Positions 5,874 to 41,798 of a stretch of 64,000 nt of DNA are shown here, piece after piece. Source of the DNA: an uncultured beta proteobacterium (GTDB lineage Bacteria; Pseudomonadota; Gammaproteobacteria; Burkholderiales; SG8-41). A model generated the notes under the pieces. That model did no database searches. It was not told the DNA's origin and worked only from the letters and a program-made list of their open reading frames with translations. The position numbers and the translations under genes are program-made. The number at the start of each line of letters is the position of its first letter. Position 1 is the stretch's first letter. Location: contig CAISJL010000164.1 in the NCBI GenBank assembly GCA_903885665.1, positions 1-64,000 on the forward strand, read 5' to 3'.

Positions 5874-5984
5874 GTATAGCGGGAAATATGCAACTGAACA
5901 GAAGCCCTGAAATAACCCTTTGACGATGTGCGTCTCAGGCCATCATTCACCGAAATTTCGCATTAATACAGCCCAACAGCCTGA

Positions 5985-6073
5985 TGTCGACAAATGGCAT
6001 TAATAGCGACACATAATCCAGTCATGCCGTTGGCAGCGACATCTATTTAAAACGTGTCGCTCATGTCGCGACA
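5985..6073. promoter_or_regulatory. Cluster of TGTCGC/GCGACA sites (operator- or iteron-like)
   Basis: Within 89 bases the hexamer TGTCGC or its complement occurs at 6006-6011, 6036-6041, 6055-6060 and as the 10-base palindrome TGTCGCGACA at 6064-6073. The related palindrome TGTCGACA is at 5985-5992. Centre-to-centre spacings are about 20, 30, 19 and 11 bases, close to whole helical turns. The cluster lies in a 487-base gap between two convergent genes, where no promoter is expected; nothing else in that gap looks coding. Function unknown: a relic origin or partition site, or operators of a lost gene, are possible. Confidence 0.45.
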
Positions 6074-6261
6074 ACATCAGAATATATTGATAAAAATCAC
6101 TGTTAAGCCATTAGGAATGCCACGATGTCATGCCCCGTCGGTAAATCACACAATAGCCTGCCGACATTACCTCCCGCACAGAACCTTGAGAGCAGAGCTG
6201 CTCTAAATGCAGGACAACAACTGAGGGAATGCCGCATTGAGCTTACTTTCAAGGCGCTTGA

Positions 6262-6807
6262 TTAGCGCATCGTTTCCCAGTGACGCTGCCACTGGGGACT
6301 TAACTTAGGCTCCCCATCGAATGTTAGTGTCGCCTGACGAGGCGATGCACCAAACGCTTGCACTCTTTTTAATATTGCTTCTGCATAAGGCTCACTAACC
6401 ATACGCAGCACATTGCCACTGTTATAGCCCCGTAGGGCTGCGCGTACGGCTTCAGTGCCAGAGAACTTCTGCTCAAGCGCCTGATACCAAAACTTTAATA
6501 ACACGCGCTGGCCCGCTTGCAAGTTGGTGCAGGGGTCAAATGCCTGCTCCCAACTCAAACTCATGCGTTCAACATTTGAGGAGTGAATTTGAGCTAATCC
6601 CACTGAGAATCGCAGGCCTTGGGATTGCATTTTTTGCGCCATTTCTACTGCTTCTTTTAGAGACTGCGGCTGCCGTGCAAGTGGTTGCATACCGGAATCA
6701 GGCCCGATAGCCCATGGCTGAAAACCTGACTCCTGTTTTACAAGTGCAAAAATCAACGATGGCGGTTTATTTGCCACGTCACCGCTAGTCGCGGTAGCCC
6801 AAATCAA
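6262..6807 (-). CDS. VirB1-like lytic transglycosylase, orphan, possibly frameshifted at 5' end
   Basis: A SLT-type lysozyme-fold domain of the VirB1 kind, which locally opens peptidoglycan for type IV secretion or conjugation. It shows LVKQESGFQPWAIG with catalytic Glu26, then SVGLAQIHSSN and ALRGYNSGN. The frame can only start at TTG 6807, two codons after a stop, and there is no signal peptide. Just upstream, in a different frame, an ATG at 6832 encodes MDLLTVETIDLGY, which resembles the normal VirB1 N terminus. A one-base frameshift near 6785-6807 is therefore likely. No other virB or tra gene is in the window, so this is probably a conjugation relic. Confidence 0.65.
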   Translation of the reverse strand: MIWATATSGDVANKPPSLIFALVKQESGFQPWAIGPDSGMQPLARQPQSLKEAVEMAQKMQSQGLRFSVGLAQIHSSNVERMSLSWEQAFDPCTNLQAGQRVLLKFWYQALEQKFSGTEAVRAALRGYNSGNVLRMVSEPYAEAILKRVQAFGASPRQATLTFDGEPKLSPQWQRHWETMR

Positions 6808-7313: not shown

Positions 7314-8135
7314 TTAGGTGTTATTGATCGACACTCGCCAATGTATGCGATCTTGATCCGGCGGATAATCACCCGCAGCCTTATGATACGAACAACGGTT
7401 ATCCCAAATCACCACATCGCCCTTGCGCCATTGGTGGCGGTATTGATTGGGAGGATCAGCCATCATTGCGCTCAAAGCTTCAATCACTGCATCACTTTCT
7501 GGCGCTGACAAACCATCAATGCTAATAATTTTACGTTGGTCAAAATAGAGCAAGGTTCTGCCCGTCTCTGGGTGCACTTGAATCAAACGATGGCACGCTG
7601 GTTTGCGATGACGGTCAGCCGGATCGAGTAGTGCATTATCTTTAATCCGACCGCCGTAGACAAACTGTCCGGTCTTATCCGCCAATAATTGTTTGAGGCT
7701 ATCGTCTAGTGCTTCATAGGCTGAATAAGCGCTCGAGAAAAACGTATCACCACCCACGGTTGGTATTGCGAGGGCATACAGTTGCGTGGCCTTAAATGGC
7801 ACTGCTTCATACGAGCCATCAGTATGAAATCCTTCTGCACCGCGCCGATAGATATCGTTATTTAATGAACCGTCGGCGCGAAATTTATTCACTCCCAGCA
7901 CGGTAATCTCTGGGCAATCAGGATGCCGCGTGCTCTTTGAAGGGTGTGGGGTCAAAGCGCCGAAGCGCTGGCTGTAGCGTAAGTAGTCAGTCAGTTGCAA
8001 GCGCTGATCACGCACCACTAACACATTGCAATCGAGCCACGCTTGATAGATCACAGCAAAATCTTGATCACTGAACTGTCTGACATCTACCCCAACGACC
8101 TCAGCACCTAGAGTGCCTAATTTAGATATATGCAT
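7314..8135 (-). CDS. TauD/TfdA-family Fe(II)/2-oxoglutarate dioxygenase (1)
   Basis: A cytoplasmic enzyme of about 273 residues. It couples 2-oxoglutarate and O2 to hydroxylation of a substrate carbon, often releasing an aldehyde from an adjacent heteroatom bond. The iron triad is visible in HTDGS (His104, Asp106 from this start) and in CSYHKA (His251). The 2-oxoglutarate arginine is in RIHWRVS (about 263-267). The start is ATG 8135, which has GAGGAG nine bases upstream; an in-frame extension to 8168 lacks one. It is the last gene of a leftward operon after a Bug gene (75-base gap) and a semialdehyde dehydrogenase. Substrate not predictable; TauD, TfdA and AtsK are related types. Confidence 0.88.
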   Translation of the reverse strand: MHISKLGTLGAEVVGVDVRQFSDQDFAVIYQAWLDCNVLVVRDQRLQLTDYLRYSQRFGALTPHPSKSTRHPDCPEITVLGVNKFRADGSLNNDIYRRGAEGFHTDGSYEAVPFKATQLYALAIPTVGGDTFFSSAYSAYEALDDSLKQLLADKTGQFVYGGRIKDNALLDPADRHRKPACHRLIQVHPETGRTLLYFDQRKIISIDGLSAPESDAVIEALSAMMADPPNQYRHQWRKGDVVIWDNRCSYHKAAGDYPPDQDRIHWRVSINNT

Positions 8136-8210
8136 TCCAACACGCTCCTCGCTACTGGTTCCTTGCAACTGCTATTAAATTTTTTATAAGCAATTGAAAA
8201 TCAAGATTTT

Positions 8211-9176
8211 TTATTCAGGCTGAATACCTGCCAACTTCACCACCTTACCCCAACGGTCGATCTCCGCCGCCACCATTGCTTTAAAGATGGGCGGTTGGTT
8301 TGGCGCAATCTCCAAAGCCATGGCATTAAAGCGCTCGCGCAACTCCGGTTGCGCTAATGCCTGATGGGTGTATTGCACCAAGCGCGTGAGTAGTGGCGCG
8401 GGTAGCGCAGGTGGCCCCATTACTCCAAACCAATTGGCTACAATCACTTCTTTAACCCCTAACTCTACAAACGTCGGCACCTCCGGTAATACACTGGCGC
8501 GCTGCTCTGCCGCCACTGCCAACACCCGTAGTCGCCCTGCCGCAACATGACCCACTGTCGTCGGCAGGCTTGGAAATGCGGCTTGCACTTGCGCGCCAAT
8601 CAAACCGGTGACTGCAAGCCCAATGCTTTTATAAGGCACACCGACTACATCCAGTTGCAGCGATTTTTTAAACAACTCTCCGGTTAAATGGGTGATGGAA
8701 CCACTGCCGCCATTACCGTAATTGAGGCGCCCGGGTTGCGCCCGCACTAAAGATATAAACGCCGCCAAATCTCGCGCAGTCTGTGGTTGCACAGCTAGCA
8801 CCATCGGCGTGCGTCCGACCATCGAGATAAAACTAAAATCACGGATCGGATCATAGGGAATGTTGCGCAATACATGCACGTTAATCGAATGTACTGCATC
8901 GCCCAACATCAAGGTGTAGCCATCTGGTACAGCACGCGCAGTCAGGCTGCGGCCAATAATACTCGAGGCACCGGCACGATTATCAATCACGACACTCTGC
9001 CCCAGCTGGGCTACCATCATCTGCGCTAAGACCCGCGCGATTGCGTCGGAGGAGCCGCCTGGTGCATAAGGTACAATTAATCGAATGGGGCGCTCTGGAT
9101 AAACCGCCAGCACCACACTCGACAAGCACATCAACAACAAAGCGCGCACTATGTTGCGCATACCGACAATTTGCAT
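8211..9176 (-). CDS. Bug/TctC-family periplasmic solute-binding protein (2)
   Basis: A solute-binding protein of about 321 residues starting at ATG 9176, which is preceded by GGAGGAG. The longer in-frame start at 9236 has no such site. The signal peptide runs to about LSSVVLA, followed by YPERPIRLIVPYAPGG, VVIDNRAGASS, VPDGYTL and VPYKSIG. It lies between a semialdehyde dehydrogenase gene (upstream, 104-base gap) and a TauD-type dioxygenase gene (downstream, 75 bases), all leftward. It probably captures the substrate or a related acid for that pathway. No TctA/TctB genes accompany it. Confidence 0.9.
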   Translation of the reverse strand: MQIVGMRNIVRALLLMCLSSVVLAVYPERPIRLIVPYAPGGSSDAIARVLAQMMVAQLGQSVVIDNRAGASSIIGRSLTARAVPDGYTLMLGDAVHSINVHVLRNIPYDPIRDFSFISMVGRTPMVLAVQPQTARDLAAFISLVRAQPGRLNYGNGGSGSITHLTGELFKKSLQLDVVGVPYKSIGLAVTGLIGAQVQAAFPSLPTTVGHVAAGRLRVLAVAAEQRASVLPEVPTFVELGVKEVIVANWFGVMGPPALPAPLLTRLVQYTHQALAQPELRERFNAMALEIAPNQPPIFKAMVAAEIDRWGKVVKLAGIQPE

Positions 9177-9280
9177 TTCTCCTCCAGCAACCACATGAGC
9201 AACGTCAAGCTGTACAGGCGCAGTCATTGACTGCACCTGCCGCCTTATTCAATTGTTTGCTTGAACACTATTTGATTTAA

Positions 9281-11101: not shown

Positions 11102-11968
11102 ATGCCTCTCAAAATACGTCGCCTCTCCAATGCCTTAGGTGCTGAAATTTGCGATATCAATATCGCGCAACCCATGAGTGAGTCCACATTCGGAGAGATC
11201 CACCAGATTTTTCTAGAATATGGCATCTTGTTGTTTCGCAATCAGCACATCAGCCGCGAGCAACATATTGCATTTAGCCGGCATTTTGGTGAACTGGATC
11301 GCCATGAGTCACTACCCCGCGATCGCCATCCCGATTATCCTGAATTATTGCTGGTGACCAATCGCCCCAATCCAGATGGCTCACCCTCAGACTCGCGCTA
11401 TACCGGCAGGCTCTGGCATAGCGACTTATCCTATACCACCCAACCCGCATTAGGCTCCTTGCTCCGTTGTTTTAACTTACCCGAAGTGGGGGGTGACACT
11501 CTGTTTTGCAACATGAGTATGGCCTATGCGGCCTTGTCTACTGGCATGAAAACACTAATCGCCGATCTGCATGGTATTCATTTATCTGGCACCCGTAAAA
11601 TCAACAACGCCGAGACCGGCACTGCACGTGCAGCAGAAGTGATGCGACTCAATCCGCCAATCGCCCAACCCCTGGTTCGCGTTCACCCTGAAACAGGACG
11701 CAAAGCCCTCTACCTCGGGCAAAAGGTCAAACGCTTTGATGGCCTCACCGAAGCCGAGAGCAAGCCCTTAATTGACTATCTCAATCAATATGCAACTCAG
11801 CCCGAATTCGTCTACCGACATCAATGGCGCGAGAACGACTTGTTGGTGTGGGATAACCGCTGCACCATGCATCAGGCGTTAGGCGATTTTGATGAAGCAC
11901 AGTTACGCCATCTCGAACGCACCACGGTCATGGGCACAGCGTCTGGCTATATTGTGGCAAACCCATAA
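11102..11968 (+). CDS. TauD/TfdA-family Fe(II)/2-oxoglutarate dioxygenase (2)
   Basis: A 288-residue dioxygenase of the same family as the leftward copy. The iron ligands are in LWHSDLS (His106, Asp108) and CTMHQAL (His257), with the 2-oxoglutarate Arg at about 273 in LERTTV. Shared blocks with copy 1 include VHPETGR, YRHQWR and VWDNRC, but the rest has diverged, so the two are not recent duplicates and may act on different substrates or successive steps. The ATG at 11102 has only a weak ribosome site. It is followed after about 85 bases by a Bug gene in the same direction. Confidence 0.88.
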   Translation: MPLKIRRLSNALGAEICDINIAQPMSESTFGEIHQIFLEYGILLFRNQHISREQHIAFSRHFGELDRHESLPRDRHPDYPELLLVTNRPNPDGSPSDSRYTGRLWHSDLSYTTQPALGSLLRCFNLPEVGGDTLFCNMSMAYAALSTGMKTLIADLHGIHLSGTRKINNAETGTARAAEVMRLNPPIAQPLVRVHPETGRKALYLGQKVKRFDGLTEAESKPLIDYLNQYATQPEFVYRHQWRENDLLVWDNRCTMHQALGDFDEAQLRHLERTTVMGTASGYIVANP

Positions 11969-11994
11969 CCATTCGCATCAGAGTGTAAATTCGC

Positions 11995-12026
11995 TAACTT
12001 ATTGATTTTATTTAATAAATTATAAT
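11995..12026 (+). promoter_or_regulatory. AT-rich promoter-like element before Bug gene
   Basis: The segment begins TAACTTATTGATTTTATT and ends with a perfect TATAAT at 12021-12026, 28 bases before the next start codon. TTATTG at 11999-12004 could serve as the -35 box with a 16-base spacer. Near-identical segments occur at 60619-60636 before lnt and, less perfectly, at other gene boundaries in this window. It suggests that the Bug gene can be transcribed separately from the dioxygenase gene. Confidence 0.5.
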
Positions 12027-12054
12027 CGCGACCGTATCGTCGCTGGAGACATTT

Positions 12055-13032
12055 ATGTATTGGCAACGCCCCCAAGCCCTTGTTCGCACTCTAATTGGTA
12101 TCGCGCTGTGCAGCGTGTTTAGTTTTTTCGCGCATGCCGAATACCCCGATCGCCCTATCCGCATTCTTGTCCCCTTCACCCCAGGCGGTTCAACCGATAT
12201 CTTAGCCCGCATGATCGGTCAAAAACTCACTGAGGCTTGGGGTCAACAAGTGATCGCTGACAACCGCCCTGGCGCCAATGGTGTAGTGGCCGCTGAGCTC
12301 ACCGCCAAAAGTAATCCTGACGGACATACCTTAATGTTTGTAGCGATCGGCCATGCAATCAACCCCATACTGATCAAAACGTTACCCTACGATCCAGACA
12401 AAGCTTTTAGCGCAGTGAGCTTAACCGCTGTATTGCCACAAATTCTAGCCGTTCATCCTGCTGTCAAAGCCTCGACCTTGCGCGAACTATTAAGCTTGGC
12501 TAAGGGACCAAAGCCCGTCAATTACGCCACCGGTGGTATTGGTTCTTCGCAACATCTAGCCACTGAGTTACTCAATTACATGGCTAAAATTAAAATGAAC
12601 CATGTGCCCTACAAAGGTGGCAATCAAGGATTGTTGGATGTGACTGCAGGTCATGTGGATTTAATTATTACCACTGCACTCACCGTACTTCCTCACGCCA
12701 AAACAGGTCGCATTCGCGCACTGGCCGCAAGCACCAGCAAACGCCTAGAGGTCATGCCGGAGTTGCCAACCATGGCAGAGGCCGGTGTTGCTGGCTATGA
12801 GTCGGTGGCTTGGTATGGCTTGGTCGCCCCTGCAGGACTCCCCCCTAAAGTGCTAGAAAAAATTGCCACCGAAACCGTCAAAGCCACTCGCTCTAACGAC
12901 ATGCAAGCAGCCTTGATTAAGCAAGGTGCAATCCCTATTGGCAACACACCACGTGAATTTACGCAATTCATCAAAGCCGAGACCACTAAATACACCAAAG
13001 TGATTCGGGAAGCCGGGATTAAACCGGAGTAG
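12055..13032 (+). CDS. Bug/TctC-family periplasmic solute-binding protein (3)
   Basis: A 325-residue binding protein with GGAG six bases before its ATG. The signal peptide (about 1-29) ends FFAHAEYP and is followed by RPIRILVPFTPGG, VIADNRPGANG, NPDGHTL, YATGGIGSSQHL and VPYKGGN. It lies downstream of the rightward TauD-type dioxygenase gene and has its own promoter-like element. Its 3' end overlaps by 14 bases the 3' end of the convergent alpha/beta-hydrolase gene. Ligand unknown; the gene context suggests an organic acid or a sulfonated/ether-linked acid handled by the dioxygenases. Confidence 0.9.
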   Translation: MYWQRPQALVRTLIGIALCSVFSFFAHAEYPDRPIRILVPFTPGGSTDILARMIGQKLTEAWGQQVIADNRPGANGVVAAELTAKSNPDGHTLMFVAIGHAINPILIKTLPYDPDKAFSAVSLTAVLPQILAVHPAVKASTLRELLSLAKGPKPVNYATGGIGSSQHLATELLNYMAKIKMNHVPYKGGNQGLLDVTAGHVDLIITTALTVLPHAKTGRIRALAASTSKRLEVMPELPTMAEAGVAGYESVAWYGLVAPAGLPPKVLEKIATETVKATRSNDMQAALIKQGAIPIGNTPREFTQFIKAETTKYTKVIREAGIKPE

Positions 13033-35206: not shown

Positions 35207-35995
35207 CTAAGCAAACAGTCTAGCCAATTCCACCCCGGGATCCGATGCCCGCATAAACGCCTCGCCCACTAAAAAACCATGCACAGCATGCGCGCGCATC
35301 AAGGCAACATCGGCCACCGCCAAAATCCCGCTCTCAGTGATCACCATACGCTCAGCCGACACTTGAGGCAACAAGTCAATCGTGGTTTGTAATCGCGTCT
35401 CAAAGGTGCGCAAATTACGATTGTTAATCCCGAGCAGCGGCGTGCGTAATTGCAAGGCGATCTGCAACTCATCAGCCGCATGCACTTCCACTAACACCGC
35501 CATCCCTAGTTCCAGGGCAACCGCCTCTAGTGACTGCAATTGCGCAGGCGTCAAAGCAGCAACAATCAGCAATATGCAATCAGCACCTGCGGCTCTTGCT
35601 GCATATATTTGATAAGGATCCATAATGAAATCCTTGCGTAACACCGGCAACTGACACGCTGCACGAGCGACTACTAAATCAGCCAACTGACCTTGAAAAA
35701 ACTGCTCATCAGTCAATACGGATAAACATGCCGCACCATGCTGCTGATAACTTGCAGCAATCGCTGCAGGTTCAAAGTGCTGGCGTAATACGCCTTTACT
35801 AGGACTCGCTTTTTTAATTTCCGCAATCACAGCGGACTGTCCTTGTGCCACCTTTGCGCGCAGCGCTGCAACAAAGTCGCGCACTGGAGGGGCAACGGCA
35901 GCAGCGACTTGTACGGCGGCCAGCGATTGATGTAGTTGCGCCGCGCGCACTTCTTCCGCTTTAACCGCCATAATGCGTTTGAGAATATCAGACAT
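35207..35995 (-). CDS. trpC: Indole-3-glycerol-phosphate synthase
   Basis: A 262-residue TIM-barrel enzyme closing the indole ring in tryptophan synthesis. It shows [70 protein letters not shown] and ITESGI. ATG 35995 lies inside the end of trpD (8-base overlap), so the pair is translationally coupled. Last gene of the trpG-trpD-trpC run. Confidence 0.96.
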
Positions 35996-37010
35996 AGCGC
36001 TTCGAGAATTCAATAAATTGATCCAACTTCCGCCGCGCCTCACCATTTGCGATGACCGCTTGCGCCCGCTTTACACCATCCAACAAATTAATCGACATAC
36101 CAGCAACATAAATACTCGCCCCCGCATTGAGGGCAACAATGTCCCGCGCCGCGCCGGGCTTATCTGACAAAGCCCCCAACAGCATCGCTTTTGACTCCTC
36201 GACGCTACTCACACGTATGGCCGAATTATTATGTGTTTTAAGTCCCACATCAGCGGGCGCAATCATATACTCTTTGACTTCACCGTATTTGAGCTCACCC
36301 ACTGCACTTGGGCCACTAATCGATAACTCATCCAGACCTTCTAGACCATGTACAATCATGACACGACGACTACCTAGCTGCGCCAAAACCCGCGCTTGTA
36401 TTCCCACCAAATCAGGATGAAACACTCCCATAACTTGCTGACGCGCCCCTGCTGGGTTAGTTAAAGGACCTAAAATATTAAACAAGGTCTTCACACCCAA
36501 TTCACGCCGTACTGGTGCTGCATGTTTCATCGCCGCATGATGATTGGGTGCAAACATAAACCCTACACCCACCTCAGCAATCGAATCGACGACAGCCTGG
36601 GGCGACAGGTTAATATTGACGCCTAAGGCCTCTAAGACATCGGCACTGCCCGATGTGCTAGAAACTGAACGTCCACCATGTTTTGCAATTTTAGCGCCCG
36701 CTGCAGCCGCTACAAACATAGCGGCCGTGGAAACATTAAAAGTGTGGGCTGCATCCCCACCCGTACCACAAGTATCTATTAACTCTAAAGCATCCGGCAC
36801 TGCCACTTTAGTGGAAAACTCTCGCATCACTGTGGCCGCTGCAGCAATCTCACCGATGGTTTCTTTTTTCACCCGCAAGGCGGCGACCAGTGCCGCAATA
36901 CAGACAGGCGAGACTTCCCCAGACATAATCTGTCTCATCAGCGACAACATATCATCATGGGCAATTTCACGATGATCAATCAAATGCGCTAGCGCTTCTT
37001 GCGGCGTCAT
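35988..37010 (-). CDS. trpD: Anthranilate phosphoribosyltransferase
   Basis: A 340-residue enzyme joining anthranilate and PRPP. The PRPP-binding [17 protein letters not shown] (about 84-100), [21 protein letters not shown] and [12 protein letters not shown] are present. Its ATG overlaps the trpG stop by four bases (ATGA) and its 3' end overlaps trpC by eight, so the three genes form one tight unit. Confidence 0.96.
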
Positions 37011-37579
37011 GGTCGCTGCTCCTCTAAAAAGTTTTTCAACAACGCATGACCGTGCTCCGTCAGGATGGACTCAGGATGAAACTGCACCCCCTGCACCGCC
37101 AGCGTGCGATGTCGCACTCCCATAATTTCACCGTCTGCTGTCCATGCCGTTATTTCTAAACAGTCTGGCAAAGTCGCCCGCTCAATTACCAATGAGTGAT
37201 AGCGGGTTGCCACTAAGGGACATGGCAAACCCCGAAACACACCGCCATCGCGATGCTCAATAGGAGAGGTTTTACCATGCATTAATTCTTGTGCACGCAC
37301 AATCCGTCCACCAAAAGCCTGGCCGATACTTTGATGACCCAAGCACACGCCTAAGATCGGGATCTTACCGCTAAAGGCAGTGATCAACGGTACAGAAATA
37401 CCAGCCTCATTTGGGGTGCATGGTCCTGGCGAAACCACGATTCTTGCAGGCCGAAGTGCAGCAACTTCATTCAAAGTGATTTCATCATTACGATGCACTG
37501 CCACGTCCTCACCCAACTCGCCAAAATATTGGGCGAGGTTGTAAGTAAACGAGTCATAATTATCGATCAGTAGTAACAT
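37007..37579 (-). CDS. trpG: Anthranilate synthase component II (glutamine amidotransferase)
   Basis: A 190-residue class I amidotransferase supplying ammonia to Trp[19 protein letters not shown], the nucleophile elbow GVCLGHQ (Cys79) and the His-Glu pair in [12 protein letters not shown] are all present. It may also serve folate synthesis (PabA). In related bacteria trpG directly follows trpE. Here about 1.9 kb carrying a Bug gene and a 2OG-like gene separates them, with 141 bases of non-coding DNA on this side. Confidence 0.95.
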
Positions 37580-37720
37580 AAATTGCCTAATAAAAATTAC
37601 TGAATAAAAATTTCTATACCTAATGAATTAATGCCACCGGATTAAACCCTGCAGAAAATGTAGCGCTATACAAATAACGCTTTGTCATCCGCTCATCAGG
37701 GGCAGCAAAAAATCATCATA

Positions 37721-38389
37721 CTACCAATATAACTTCCAATCGCCTTGCGATAATAGGGCGTGGCCCTGCAATGTAATTCTCTCGTCCTGTGGTTGATACT
37801 CATGAGCAGGAGCGATCTGATGCAACAAACGACCCGAGTGGACGACCATCTCGCCCACGGCATATTCAATATTATGCGTAGGTAGCGCACTGAGAATCTG
37901 TTTTAAATTCACGGCGTCTGCGGGTACATCTGGTTGCCATTCATAATCCCAATAGTTTAAACCGGCACCCTTGCTTGGCAGCGTAATGGGTAATGTAAAA
38001 GAGACTGGTCGAGCAAAATCAGTTTGTGAGGACCAATCTAATGCAAGATGCTGTGCATCCCAATGTACTGCAGCAATAGCCTGTATGAATGCAGGATGCG
38101 CCAAAAAAATATGAAACCCAGGTAATGCATACGCAGGATCATAGACGACTGTTTGCTTAAAGTGCGTTGAAAGTGCGCTTGCCACCATTTCATACAGCCA
38201 ACCAAAAGTCTCCCATAATAACGGTCTCGAATCATGCGCAGACCGATAATAGTGGGCCTTGCTGATTTCCGCATCGAGGTAACTCGCCACACCAAGCGTA
38301 TAGAACGGAAGCTGTGGAATGCGAGAAGTCCAGTGGTGGCGATTAGCATGTATGGCATCGAGGACTGGGATCCGTACGAACTCACTCAT
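37721..38389 (-). CDS. Uncharacterised protein with an HxD...H...R pattern (possible 2OG-Fe(II) oxygenase)
   Basis: A 222-residue protein with no family I can name. It has a plausible iron triad, His109-Trp-Asp111 in AVHWDAQH and His190 in SGRLLHQI, with Arg204 in DERITLQGH. The beta-rich SFTLPITLPSKGAGLNYW segment lies between them. This order and spacing fit the cupin-like core of Fe(II)/2-oxoglutarate oxygenases (HxD, distal His, and Arg about 14 residues later). It lies 17 bases after a Bug gene and between trpE and trpG, all leftward. The function is inferred from pattern only. Confidence 0.5.
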   Translation of the reverse strand: MSEFVRIPVLDAIHANRHHWTSRIPQLPFYTLGVASYLDAEISKAHYYRSAHDSRPLLWETFGWLYEMVASALSTHFKQTVVYDPAYALPGFHIFLAHPAFIQAIAAVHWDAQHLALDWSSQTDFARPVSFTLPITLPSKGAGLNYWDYEWQPDVPADAVNLKQILSALPTHNIEYAVGEMVVHSGRLLHQIAPAHEYQPQDERITLQGHALLSQGDWKLYW

Positions 38390-38406
38390 GATTAGTTAGC
38401 AATCCA

Positions 38407-39390
38407 TTACTCAGCGCGCATACCGCGTTCGCGAACTACGCCCGCCCACCGCTCATTTTCTTTCTTGAGATGCGCTGCAAATTCTTCCGGAGAGCTGACA
38501 GCAATTTCAATACCGCGTTCATTAAACATCCGCACAATTTCTGGCGTAGCCAGTGCTTTACGCATCTGCTCATTCAACACATTCACTGCATTACGTGGCG
38601 TCTTGGCAGGCGCGAAAATACCAAACCAAGTCACAAATTCATAACCAGGCAAGCCACTCTGATCAACCGTTGGGATATCCGGAAAAGCGGGCGAACGTTT
38701 TAGGCTTGTCACACCCAAGGGCCGCAAACGCTTGGCCCGTACATAGGATGAAGTCTCGGCAATGTTGGTAAATGTCGCGCTCACCTCACCACTCATAGCA
38801 GCAACTAGTCCTGGACCACCGCCTTTGTAGTGGACAGCAATTAAGCTAGTCTTGGCCATAAAGTTAAATAATTCGCCGCCAATATGTGGGTTAGTACCAA
38901 CCCCTGCCGAGGCATAATTAATGAGTTTTGGGCGTGCACGGGCAAATGCAATTAATTCTTTAATACTATAGACCGGCACTGACGGGTGCACGGTCACAAT
39001 CGAGGGCGAAATACCCACCATACCGACTGGCGCAAAATCATTAATAGGGTGGTAAGGTGCTTTACCATAAATATGTGGGTTCACCACAAATGGCAAGGTA
39101 TTCATCAACACGGTGTAACCATCAGCCGGGCCGCGCGCCACTAACTCGGTACCGATATTGCCAGAAGCGCCAGAACGATTATCTGCAATCACCGGCTGCC
39201 CCAAAAACTCGGATAACTTGGGCGCCAACATCCTCGACACCAAATCGACACTGCCGCCCGGTGCAAACGGCACAATGATACGCACAGCCTTAGTGGGATA
39301 GTTATCTGACTGAGCTATCCCCAAGGTGGGCACCAAGACCAGACTCATTAGTACCGTTAAGTAGCTGAGTATGTCATAATTTTTTTTCAT
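38407..39390 (-). CDS. Bug/TctC-family periplasmic solute-binding protein (5), inside the trp cluster
   Basis: A 327-residue binding protein whose ATG follows GAGG by five bases. The signal peptide ends TLGIAQSD, followed by YPTKAVRIIVPFAPGG, VIADNRSGASG, PADGYTV, YASAGVGTNPHI and VHYKGGGP. It lies 105 bases after trpE and is followed closely (17 bases) by the possible oxygenase gene. That pair breaks the normal trpE-trpG adjacency. A role in tryptophan synthesis is not expected; insertion of a cassette is more likely. Confidence 0.9.
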   Translation of the reverse strand: MKKNYDILSYLTVLMSLVLVPTLGIAQSDNYPTKAVRIIVPFAPGGSVDLVSRMLAPKLSEFLGQPVIADNRSGASGNIGTELVARGPADGYTVLMNTLPFVVNPHIYGKAPYHPINDFAPVGMVGISPSIVTVHPSVPVYSIKELIAFARARPKLINYASAGVGTNPHIGGELFNFMAKTSLIAVHYKGGGPGLVAAMSGEVSATFTNIAETSSYVRAKRLRPLGVTSLKRSPAFPDIPTVDQSGLPGYEFVTWFGIFAPAKTPRNAVNVLNEQMRKALATPEIVRMFNERGIEIAVSSPEEFAAHLKKENERWAGVVRERGMRAE

Positions 39391-39495
39391 ATCATCCTCT
39401 TGAAATAGTGAATCTCACAACCACTTGCTCCATAACCCCATAGCTCCACAACTCTAATAAACCACACCACTGAATCACATCCCTGAAACACACCA

Positions 39496-40968
39496 CTATA
39501 GTTGCGTATCTAGACCTGCTTCAGCCATTTCGGCAGCACGCAACAATGCGCGCGCCTTGCTTTGTGTTTCTTGCCATTCGGCTTCTGGATCTGAATCGGC
39601 CACCACACCGCCACCGGCTTGTACATGTAATTGTCCGTCTTTAATCACCCCTGTACGCAAAGCAATCGCCACGTCCATGTTGCCATGGAACCCCAAATAA
39701 CCCACTGCACCCGCATAGATACAACGCTTTACCGGTTCGAGCTCGTCAATAATTTCCATCGCCCGCACTTTTGGCGCACCCGACACCGTGCCTGCTGGAA
39801 AAGTGGCACGCAATACGTCTATCGCTTTGAGTCCGTGTTTGAGCTTAGCCTCAACATTAGAGACAATATGCATCACATGCGAATAGCGCTCAATAATCAT
39901 CTGCTCAGTCACCTTCACCGAGCCCACTTGAGCCACACGACCCGCATCATTGCGTCCCAAATCGACCAACATAATATGCTCTGCCCGCTCTTTGTGATCG
40001 GCCAAGAGTTCAGCAGCGAGTGCGGCATCCTCCGCAGGGGTGGATCCGCGGCGACGGGTGCCAGCAATCGGCCGCACAGTGACCAGATCGCCTTCCAAGC
40101 GCGCCAGAATCTCGGGCGAGGCCCCTACGACATGAAAATCATCCAAATTAAAATAATACATATACGGCGAGGGATTAAGCGCCCGCAATGCTCTATACAA
40201 CGATAAAGGTGAAGCAGTAAACGGTTTAGACAAGCGCTGTGAAGGCACTACCTGCATAATATCGCCGGCGCGAATATATTCTTTAGCTTTAGCCACGGCC
40301 GCGTGATACGCGGTTTGACCGAACCCCGAGACTGCAGGGACCGACGCCGTGGGCGCGCTTACGGGCAAATCTACAGGCATGCGCAGTTGTGCCAGCAGTG
40401 CGGCCAAGCGCGCCTTGGCTGCAGCGTAAGCGCCGGGCTGTTGCGGCTTAGCGTAGACCACCAAGGATAACTTGCCCGACAAGTTATCGACGATGGCGAT
40501 CTCCTCGGAGACTAGCAATAAAATATCTGGGGTATTGAGTGGATCAGGGCGTTCGTCATGGGCTAAACGCTTCTCAATATAGCGCACGGTATCGTAGCCA
40601 AAATAACCGACTAAGCCACCACAAAAACGTGGCAATCGGGCATCGGTGGCGACTTTGAAGCGTTGCAAATATTGATCGACATAAGCCAAGGGATCAGCCA
40701 CTGTCTCACTACTGAGCACTTGTTGTTGATGGATTTCTGAGCACGTGTAGCCGCGCACTTCAAGCCGCGTCTGTGCCGCTAAGCCAATAAACGAATACCG
40801 CCCAAAACGCTCACCACCGACCACAGACTCGAGTAAATAACTATACGGTTGATGAGCGAGTTTTAAATAAATCGATAAGGGTGTATCCAGATCAGCGAAG
40901 GTTTCTAACACCATCGGGATACGGTTATAACCCGCAGCGGCGAGTTGCTCAAATTCGACTTCAGTCAT
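39496..40968 (-). CDS. trpE: Anthranilate synthase component I
   Basis: A 490-residue chorismate-using enzyme making anthranilate with TrpG. The N-terminal part has the tryptophan feedback motif LLESV near residue 45. The chorismate-binding domain contains [36 protein letters not shown] and [25 protein letters not shown] 40968 has GAGGAG six bases upstream; an in-frame start at 41001 is not needed. Upstream are gph and rpe in the usual order. Confidence 0.96.
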
Positions 40969-41102
40969 GTGCTGCTCCTCAAAAACGGTAGAAAAGGTCA
41001 ACCAACTCCGGCGCGATCAGCGACGCCAAGTCCAAGCGCAACACCAAAGCGCTTGCGATCGACACACAGAATGGCTCAGACACAGTTTCCAGGAGAGCAC
41101 TA

Positions 41103-41798
41103 TTAAACCTTTTTAATCAAAGAGATGCATTCAGTTAATGTTGCTACTATAGCATCAACTTCATGCCTCTGCACAGCCCGCCCCTCGGTGTAGCCATAGG
41201 GCACTGCAAATATCGGACAGCCTGCGGCACGCGCAGCTTGCACATCATTCATCGAATCGCCCACCATCAACACCTGTGCCGGCGCTAAACCCCATTGTTC
41301 ACAAATATGCAATAGCGGCCGCGGATCGGGTTTTTTTTGGGGCAAGGTATCGCCACAAACGGTAATCGAGAAAAACTCCGCCAAGTCCTGACGCGCTAAC
41401 AACGGCAGCGCAAAGGCAGAAGACTTATTCGTCATACAAGCCAGAGGAAAACCCGCCGCCCGCAATTGTGTCAAACCCGCTACGACGCCAGGGTATATCT
41501 GGGTCTGGGTACCATTGACCGCAGCATAACAACGCTCAAAAATCGGCATGGCGGCGGTCACTGCCGTCGCCTCCGCGACCCCGTCGACGCTACGCGCTAG
41601 GGCACGCTCGACCAATCGCCGTAGACCTTTACCGACAAAAGTGCGCACCACGCTCTCCGGTAACGGCTGCTCCCCCAAGACCACCAACATCTGATTAGTC
41701 GCAACGGTCAGGTCAGCAATTGTGTCCAACATCGTCCCATCGAGGTCAACAATAACGCCCTGAATCGGCAGCGGAAATTGCAATGTACTAGCAGCCAT
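41103..41798 (-). CDS. gph: Phosphoglycolate phosphatase (HAD family)
   Basis: A 231-residue HAD-type phosphatase. Motif I is VDLDGTMLDT (nucleophile Asp18), motif II is MTNKSS, and motif III/IV is KKPDPRPL ... VGDSMNDVQAARAAG. The helical cap follows motif I. It removes phosphate from 2-phosphoglycolate formed by oxygenation reactions or DNA repair. It lies nine bases after rpe and before trpE, the common Burkholderiales order. Confidence 0.93.
   Translation of the reverse strand: MAASTLQFPLPIQGVIVDLDGTMLDTIADLTVATNQMLVVLGEQPLPESVVRTFVGKGLRRLVERALARSVDGVAEATAVTAAMPIFERCYAAVNGTQTQIYPGVVAGLTQLRAAGFPLACMTNKSSAFALPLLARQDLAEFFSITVCGDTLPQKKPDPRPLLHICEQWGLAPAQVLMVGDSMNDVQAARAAGCPIFAVPYGYTEGRAVQRHEVDAIVATLTECISLIKKV

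What the first reader, a model, noticed from the sequence alone, without database searches (positions are those of the whole stretch)
37721..39390. Bug plus novel oxygenase-like gene inserted between trpE and trpG
In related Burkholderiales trpE, trpG, trpD and trpC are contiguous. Here a Bug gene and an unrecognised protein with an HxD...H...R pattern sit between trpE and trpG, in the same direction and 17 bases apart. The insertion keeps the operon's polarity, so the trp genes could still be read through. The unrecognised protein may be a new branch of the 2-oxoglutarate oxygenases.
Basis: partly seen in the sequence, partly recalled or inferred. Interest (0 to 1): 0.55.

Follow-up and report, generated by a model that had tools for sequence, protein, structure and literature searches.

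The report
Peptide-hydroxylase-like gene inside tryptophan operon
A gene for an iron-dependent hydroxylase, of a little-studied type whose relatives sit beside bacterial peptide natural products, injection machines and in phages, lies inside one bacterium's tryptophan operon; the position is a common landing site for stray genes, but the enzyme family itself is largely unexplored.

Summary
In detail: between trpE and trpG, on the same strand, lie a Bug (TctC-type binding protein) gene and a 222-aa gene, 17 bases apart. The 'contiguous in relatives' premise holds in the genus (13 of 15 genomes) but not in the family, where 27 of 44 genomes carry 0.4-8.8 kb at this junction: an insertion hot spot. 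The Bug's best relatives lie downstream of trp in another genus.

The 222-aa protein is by fold and residues an Fe(II)/2-oxoglutarate oxygenase: pLDDT 96.6, Z 20 to WelO5 over 213 residues, and HxD, H, R almost invariant in 133 relatives. It lacks WelO5's halogenase Gly, so it should hydroxylate rather than halogenate. It reaches no Pfam or NCBIfam cut-off; PHROGs lists it without function. It was found in none of 73 other genomes of its family and in 3 of 399 of the order (itself included).

Relatives recur beside lanthipeptide, ATP-grasp-like and other peptide-maturation genes, beside eCIS genes, and in phages, often next to an Asp/Asn beta-hydroxylase. I infer a stand-alone peptide/protein hydroxylase gained horizontally; the substrate is unknown, and a role in tryptophan metabolism is unsupported.

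The parts
39496..41001 (-). trpE, upstream flank of the insert
   Evidence: ORF; 79-84% identical trpE in the genus (one partial match 80%)
39391..39495 (-). 105-bp spacer trpE-Bug
   Evidence: coordinates; no unusual fold (z 0.39)
38407..39390 (-). Bug / TctC periplasmic binding protein gene
   Evidence: PF03401, 213.3 bits, cut-off 27; PDB relatives BugD, Bug27, terephthalate-binding protein
37721..38389 (-). OXY: 222-aa HxD-type, WelO5-fold Fe(II)/2-oxoglutarate oxygenase
   Evidence: AF2 pLDDT 96.6; Foldseek and VIA to WelO5; family alignment
38057..38065 (-). codons H109-W110-D111 (HxD, proposed Fe ligands)
   Evidence: sequence; H 133/133, D 132/133
37820..37822 (-). codon H190 (proposed third Fe ligand)
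   Evidence: 131 of 133, 2 gaps
37778..37780 (-). codon R204 (proposed 2-oxoglutarate anchor)
   Evidence: 130 of 133, 2 gaps, 1 Leu
37580..37720 (-). 141-bp AT-rich spacer OXY-trpG, without the G-rich ribosome site seen before trpG in three contiguous same-genus genomes
   Evidence: fold z -2.24
37007..37579 (-). trpG, downstream flank of the insert
   Evidence: ORF; relatives
35207..37010 (-). trpD (35988-37010) and trpC (35207-36046)
   Evidence: ORFs; same order in g9 genomes

Best explanation
OXY is a stand-alone Fe(II)/2-oxoglutarate-dependent hydroxylase with the WelO5 fold but the HxD triad of hydroxylases. It should bind Fe(II) through H109, D111 and H190, anchor 2-oxoglutarate through R204, use O2 to make an Fe(IV)-oxo species and hydroxylate a C-H bond; with Asp where WelO5 has Gly it should not chlorinate. 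(Shown: fold by model, nearly invariant residues. Inferred: the chemistry.) Its substrate is most likely a side chain of a peptide or protein, because relatives sit beside RiPP precursor and maturation genes, in eCIS clusters and in phages, often beside an AspH-type hydroxylase. (Shown: the neighbourhoods. Inferred: the substrate.) One lineage gained the gene horizontally (inferred from its patchy distribution). It lies, with a Bug gene related to ones downstream of trp in another genus, in the trpE-trpG spacer, where this bacterial family often carries unrelated genes. It is probably read with the trp genes (inferred); no role in tryptophan synthesis is implied.
For: Fold: pLDDT 96.6, first 17 Foldseek PDB rows WelO5-type from E 6.7e-10, Z 20.0 over 213 of 222 residues, next kind SadA Z 14.5, family profile finds WelO5 at 1.6e-5 with the G166D form first. 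Residues. Distribution: none of 73 other genomes of the family, 3 of 399 of the order with itself, 35 loci from several phyla, 84 viral contigs. Context of 35 genome loci: 9 with LanM, Nif11/NHLP leader, NHLM-type exporter and/or GNAT; 5 ATP-grasp-like; 4 M50-HlyD; 7 AAA/fibre (eCIS); 10 none; AspH in 17 of 35. Curated cut-offs passed for LanM, Nif11, NHLP, NHLM exporter, AspH, eCIS core in 6 of 7 loci scanned. Hot spot.
Against: The window gene is solitary: no leader peptide, LanM, ATP-grasp or AspH relative in the window or in about 15% of the genome, and the nearest relative by identity is a chlamydial gene also without such neighbours, so the peptide inference is by kinship only. Its place in the tree is unresolved. 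Codon usage and GC are native, which gives no support to a recent transfer. 10 of 35 relatives have no marker. The ATP-grasp and M50 assignments are below curated cut-offs. Activity, metal binding and expression are untested.
Confidence: 0.6

Rival explanations
1. OXY is a small-molecule oxygenase working with its Bug neighbour: Bug captures a carboxylate in the periplasm and OXY does the first oxidative step after import, as TauD does for taurine.
For: 17-bp spacing, same strand. Two TauD-type dioxygenase genes in the window also lie beside same-strand Bug genes. The solved fold relatives WelO5 and SadA act on small molecules (titles).
Against: Bug neighbours are common: 82 of 310 other genes (26%) in the sampled Bug-rich stretches have one on the same strand, TauD 3 of 6. 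Among the neighbour clusters and the markers I saw no Bug; Bug was not itself searched for there.
Confidence: 0.2
2. OXY acts on tryptophan, indole or an anthranilate-derived compound, and its place in the trp operon is functional.
For: Place in the operon; WelO5 acts on an indole alkaloid, 12-epi-fischerindole U (titles).
Against: The junction carries unrelated genes in 27 of 44 family genomes (contents of 13 inserts opened). Relatives are not seen beside trp genes in the neighbour lists (one search's output was cut).
Confidence: 0.06
3. OXY and Bug are passengers without present function in a tolerated insertion site.
For: Seen in one genome; hot spot with varied contents; trpG has lost the G-rich ribosome site of relatives.
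Against: Both frames are intact and OXY keeps all four catalytic positions although at most 45% identical to any relative found; native codon usage.
Confidence: 0.12
4. Assembly chimera or contamination.
For: Draft genome of 187 contigs, 3.09% contamination; seen once.
Against: Both flanks are trp genes of the genus on one 69.5-kb contig; the Bug belongs to a lineage of this family; composition is native.
Confidence: 0.02

Closest known systems
WelO5 / Wi-WelO15 carrier-independent Fe(II)/2OG halogenases (Pfam PF22814)
   Same: Nearest fold: Z 20.0, 2.9 A, 213 residues; profile match 1.6e-5; distal His and Arg align's printed alignment.
   Different: OXY has HxD where WelO5 has HxG (the best PDB sequence match is the engineered G166D form); 17% identity; about 222 against about 290-315 residues; below Pfam's cut-off; contexts are peptides, eCIS and phages.
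SadA N-substituted L-amino acid dioxygenase (3w20, 3w21)
   Same: Second kind of solved fold, Z 14.5.
   Different: Clearly further than WelO5; 16% identity over 185 residues.
phrog_24927 (cyanophage family, e.g. P-HM2 PHM2_172)
   Same: E 1.7e-33 over residues 23-222; 35-36% identity to the phage proteins.
   Different: Function unknown; phage genes lie by replication and virion genes.
RiPP hydroxylases CorC (5-hydroxylysine isopeptide) and SmaO/SmaX (Asp to aminomalonate)
   Same: Oxygenases in ATP-grasp peptide clusters; tandem OXY pairs lie beside ATP-grasp-like genes in L047, L052, L055, L056.
   Different: CorC is PF13640 (PMC13097080, section 10); the SmaO/SmaX paper is not held, so kinship is untested.
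Bug / TctC solute-binding proteins (BugD, Bug27)
   Same: Bug neighbour: PF03401 and PDB matches 1e-28 to 1e-62.
   Different: Ligand unknown; moved into trp.

Membership tests
Fe(II)/2-oxoglutarate oxygenase superfamily | double-stranded beta-helix fold | tested here: met
   AF2 model pLDDT 96.6 and many oxygenase matches
Fe(II)/2-oxoglutarate oxygenase superfamily | HxD...H metal triad and 2OG-binding Arg, conserved in the family | tested here: met
   (by sequence; geometry not measured)
Fe(II)/2-oxoglutarate oxygenase superfamily | Fe- and 2OG-dependent activity | not testable with these tools
   needs protein
WelO5 halogenases (PF22814) | fold | tested here: met
   Z 20.0, 213 residues, standing above other kinds
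WelO5 halogenases (PF22814) | Gly in place of the metal-binding carboxylate (HxG), leaving a halide site | tested here: not met
   D111 in OXY, D in 132 of 133 relatives; PDB title 'WelO5 G166D variant' shows the wild-type Gly
WelO5 halogenases (PF22814) | Pfam gathering score | tested here: not met
   24.9 against 27 bits; 14 of 62 family members match at E <= 0.01
phrog_24927 | profile match | tested here: met
   1.7e-33, residues 23-222
RiPP tailoring enzyme | precursor peptide or maturation genes beside it in the window | tested here: not met
   none in the window or the sampled 15% of the genome by single-sequence searches; met for relatives
RiPP tailoring enzyme | acts on a ribosomal peptide | not testable with these tools
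   needs assay
Bug / TctC binding protein (neighbour) | PF03401 over the cut-off | tested here: met
   213.3 against 27 bits
Ancestral trp operon order of the family | same Bug-OXY genes between trpE and trpG in relatives | tested here: not met
   OXY in none of 73 other family genomes; no OXY or Bug match (E <= 1e-8) in the 13 inserts opened

The most novel reading that the evidence does not exclude
OXY belongs to an undescribed family of WelO5-fold hydroxylases acting on ribosomally made peptides and proteins, shared between bacterial RiPP clusters, extracellular contractile injection systems, cyanophages and perhaps giant viruses, often as a two-hydroxylase module with AspH; solitary copies such as the window's act on an unlinked cellular peptide or protein and are here placed under a biosynthetic operon's control.
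Probability: 0.3. Interest if true: 0.75.

Novelty: new variant of a known kind. Interest (0 to 1): 0.5.

Why it matters
If true, one kind of oxidative modification with no assigned reaction links RiPPs, contractile injection systems and phages, and the family gives a natural HxD counterpart to the WelO5 halogenases for comparing hydroxylation with halogenation. It also marks trpE-trpG as a recurrent gene-landing site in one bacterial family. The listings of my nine completed literature searches (open-licence papers only) showed no paper that by title or abstract start describes this family; the SmaO/SmaX paper, which might, is not held.

Tried and rejected
Halogenase reading: rejected because Asp fills the halide position. 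Bug-oxygenase adjacency as a functional link: weak after the control (82 of 310 other genes, 26%, have a same-strand Bug neighbour; TauD 3 of 6; stretches were chosen for Bug density, so the baseline is inflated). Foreign composition: looked for, not found (OXY at the 47th percentile of GC, 54th of GC3, 48th of codon fit among 360 genes). RNA element: no Rfam match; the pre-trpG spacer folds with z -2.24 (5 of 200 shuffles as good), not followed. Promoters and terminators at chance. Insertion repeats: one 19-nt pair at 84% (37230, 39481), one copy inside trpG and one in the trpE-Bug spacer, judged chance. Plasmids: no match. The first viral scan with the single protein found nothing; with alignment A1, 84 matched and 80 were kept. 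AspH in the own genome: no hit, but no control rang, so absence is not shown. Tree: the window gene lies in no starred set. Lys-rich neighbours as a substrate hint: a Lys-rich protein one or two genes upstream in 26 phage loci (12-14% Lys in five measured), L063 23%, L047 17%, and the K/D/E/G repeat protein of L056: noted only. The VIA list is a second look at Foldseek's rows, so families missing there are not excluded.

Full report
What is there. On the - strand the operon reads trpE (39496-41001), Bug (38407-39390), OXY (37721-38389), trpG (37007-37579), trpD, trpC. Bug and OXY are 17 bp apart; the spacers to trpE and trpG are 105 and 141 bp. Terminator-like and promoter-like sites in 36900-41300 are at the shuffled level (3 against 4.2; 7 against 6.5) and no Rfam family matches, so read-through is plausible but not shown. 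In the three contiguous same-genus genomes I looked at, trpG has a G-rich ribosome-site-like stretch overlapping or just after the trpE stop; in the window trpG is preceded by AT-rich DNA without it.

Is the interruption unusual? Inside the genus, yes: 13 of 15 genomes with trpE and trpG on one contig have 16-108 bp between the matches; the exceptions are the window's genome (1919 bp) and G014 (1151 bp), which carries a Glyco_transf_61 gene instead. In the family, no: of 74 genomes searched, 44 had both genes on one contig, 17 with under 120 bp and 27 with 413 bp to 8.8 kb; 16 had them on different contigs and 14 lacked a match to one or both. I opened 13 interrupted loci; none held an OXY or Bug match at E <= 1e-8 and their contents differ. 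Reading by eye for 24 genomes of other families of the order: 11 contiguous, 7 with 1.3-17 kb, 2 far apart, 3 on different contigs, 1 without a trpG match. So the junction is a hot spot; what is unique is the cargo.

Where the Bug came from. Its best relatives are 63-71% identical, in nine genomes of genera g9 and g6; the best same-genus match is 50%. In G028, G089 and G094 (g9) it lies 1.7-4.7 kb beyond tyrS, in the same conserved block that runs downstream of trp in the window, 13-17 kb from trpG (gene names such as tyrS are recalled from sequence, not tested, and my gene caller missed parts of the block in G089). The simplest reading is a family gene that moved a short distance; this is inference from best matches in a huge paralogous family (150 listed matches in this 3.03-Mb genome).

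What OXY is. By sequence Pfam gives WelO5 at 24.9 bits (cut-off 27), PHROGs phrog_24927 at 1.7e-33, NCBIfam nothing. AlphaFold2 on a 62-row alignment gives pLDDT 96.6 and pTM 0.92. Foldseek's first 17 PDB rows are WelO5-type, from 6.7e-10; VIA gives Z 20.0, 2.9 A, 213 residues for WelO5 and 14.5 for SadA. The family profile finds WelO5 in the PDB at 1.6e-5, the G166D form first. Across 133 rows the HxD, distal His and Arg are almost invariant; the one D replacement is His in L069, a long-branch row. So it should work like a 2OG hydroxylase; it is structurally nearest to WelO5 and fails the defining test of the WelO5 halogenases.

Distribution. OXY was found in none of 73 other genomes of its family and in 3 of 399 genomes drawn from its order, itself included. 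The one scan of genome contigs gave 35 loci from cyanobacteria, chlamydiae, Pseudomonadota, acidobacteria, actinomycetes and a Dehalococcoidia-labelled bin; the profile scan of viral contigs gave 84 relatives, 80 kept. Among annotated phages six records of three Prochlorococcus phages match. The best viral structural match is a pithovirus protein (E 6.0e-18, TM 0.85 by query). Nearest to the window gene are a chlamydial bin (45% identity) and cyanobacterial genes (up to 44%); its place in the tree is unresolved.

Neighbourhoods. Of the 35 genome loci: 9 with LanM, Nif11/NHLP leaders, NHLM-type exporter and/or GNAT (L036, L037, L040, L041, L043, L044, L045, L050, L067; L043 and L050 are one bin); 5 with ATP-grasp-like genes (L047, L052, L055, L056, L063); 4 closely similar ones with an M50-HlyD gene (L058, L059, L060, L066); 7 with a fibre-like ORF and an AAA ATPase (L051, L054, L057, L061, L062, L064, L065); 10 without a marker (L038, L039, L042, L046, L048, L049, L053, L068, L069, L070). 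An AspH-type gene lies in 17 of the 35, usually next to OXY, and a 40-aa AspH-like fragment in L037; by the coarse clustering AspH-type genes also lie within two genes in 12 viral loci. Two family members side by side occur in 23 of 109 loci with a called member (an undercount). Curated cut-offs are passed by the representatives scanned for LanM, Nif11 leader, NHLP leader and NHLM exporter and PF05118; the ATP-grasp and M50 matches are below theirs. PF13699 eCIS core is present in 6 of 7 AAA-type loci scanned (not L057; L061 and L159 not scanned). Loci are not independent, contigs are short, and markers came from single-sequence searches.

What it most likely does. Relatives keep company with ribosomal peptides, delivered proteins and a second hydroxylase, so a peptide or protein side chain is the likeliest substrate. 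Published enzymes of like role are the graspetide oxygenases CorC (5-hydroxylysine isopeptide; PF13640) and SmaO/SmaX (Asp to beta-hydroxy-Asp to aminomalonate), as told in PMC13097080 (section 10); whether SmaO/SmaX belong to this family I could not test. For cyanophages P-HM1/P-HM2 the genome paper names asparaginyl beta-hydroxylases (T4-GC 536 and 546) among 70 genes found in both and in no other cyanophage it sequenced (passages of PMC3037559); T4-GC 536 (tlmH) lies about 2.2 kb from the OXY relative, T4-GC 539.

Limits. In the window and about 381 kb more of the genome (15% in all) single-sequence searches found no leader peptide, LanM, ATP-grasp, M50 or AspH relative, only six ABC-transporter-like matches to the NHLM seed; the own-genome PF05118 search is inconclusive because no control rang. 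Codon usage is native. The Bug adjacency is little evidence. No expression data exist here. I put the hydroxylase class itself high (about 0.9), the peptide or protein substrate at about 0.55, and a trp role under 0.1; the overall confidence of 0.6 covers the whole statement.

Noticed in passing
window 7314-9236 (-) and 11102-13032 (+): Two TauD-type dioxygenase genes (PF02668) each beside a same-strand Bug gene, 42 and 86 bp apart.
   Followed up: partly
whole genome G000: 150 listed matches to TctC/Bug (PF03401) in 3.03 Mb, all over the cut-off; 150 of 237 candidates were scored.
   Followed up: no
trpE-trpG junction in 44 genomes of the family: Insertion hot spot: 27 of 44 carry 0.4-8.8 kb there; G014 has a Glyco_transf_61 gene at the same place.
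   Followed up: partly
L036, L037, L040, L041, L043, L044, L045: OXY relative in lanthipeptide or leader-peptide clusters with a GNAT, most with AspH; possibly like acylated lanthipeptides such as nostolysamides (GNAT NpuN, passages of PMC13060382).
   Followed up: partly
L031, L051, L054, L057, L061, L062, L064, L065, L159: Recurrent block fibre-like ORF - OXY (mostly two) - AspH - AAA ATPase, with eCIS core proteins downstream in 6 of 7 loci scanned.
   Followed up: partly
L033 5174-5878 with 5875-6648, and other phage loci: A Lys-rich protein (12-14% Lys in five measured) lies one or two genes upstream of OXY in 26 phage loci; in P-HM2 the two frames overlap by 4 bp.
   Followed up: no
L056 3068-3613: A 181-aa protein with K/D/E/G-rich repeats two genes upstream of an ATP-grasp-like gene and tandem OXY pair: possible precursor.
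   Followed up: no
L037 5822-5944: A 40-aa AspH-like fragment just before OXY, perhaps a decayed AspH gene.
   Followed up: no
window 37580-37720: Spacer before trpG folds better than shuffles (z -2.24) and lacks the G-rich ribosome site seen in relatives.
   Followed up: no
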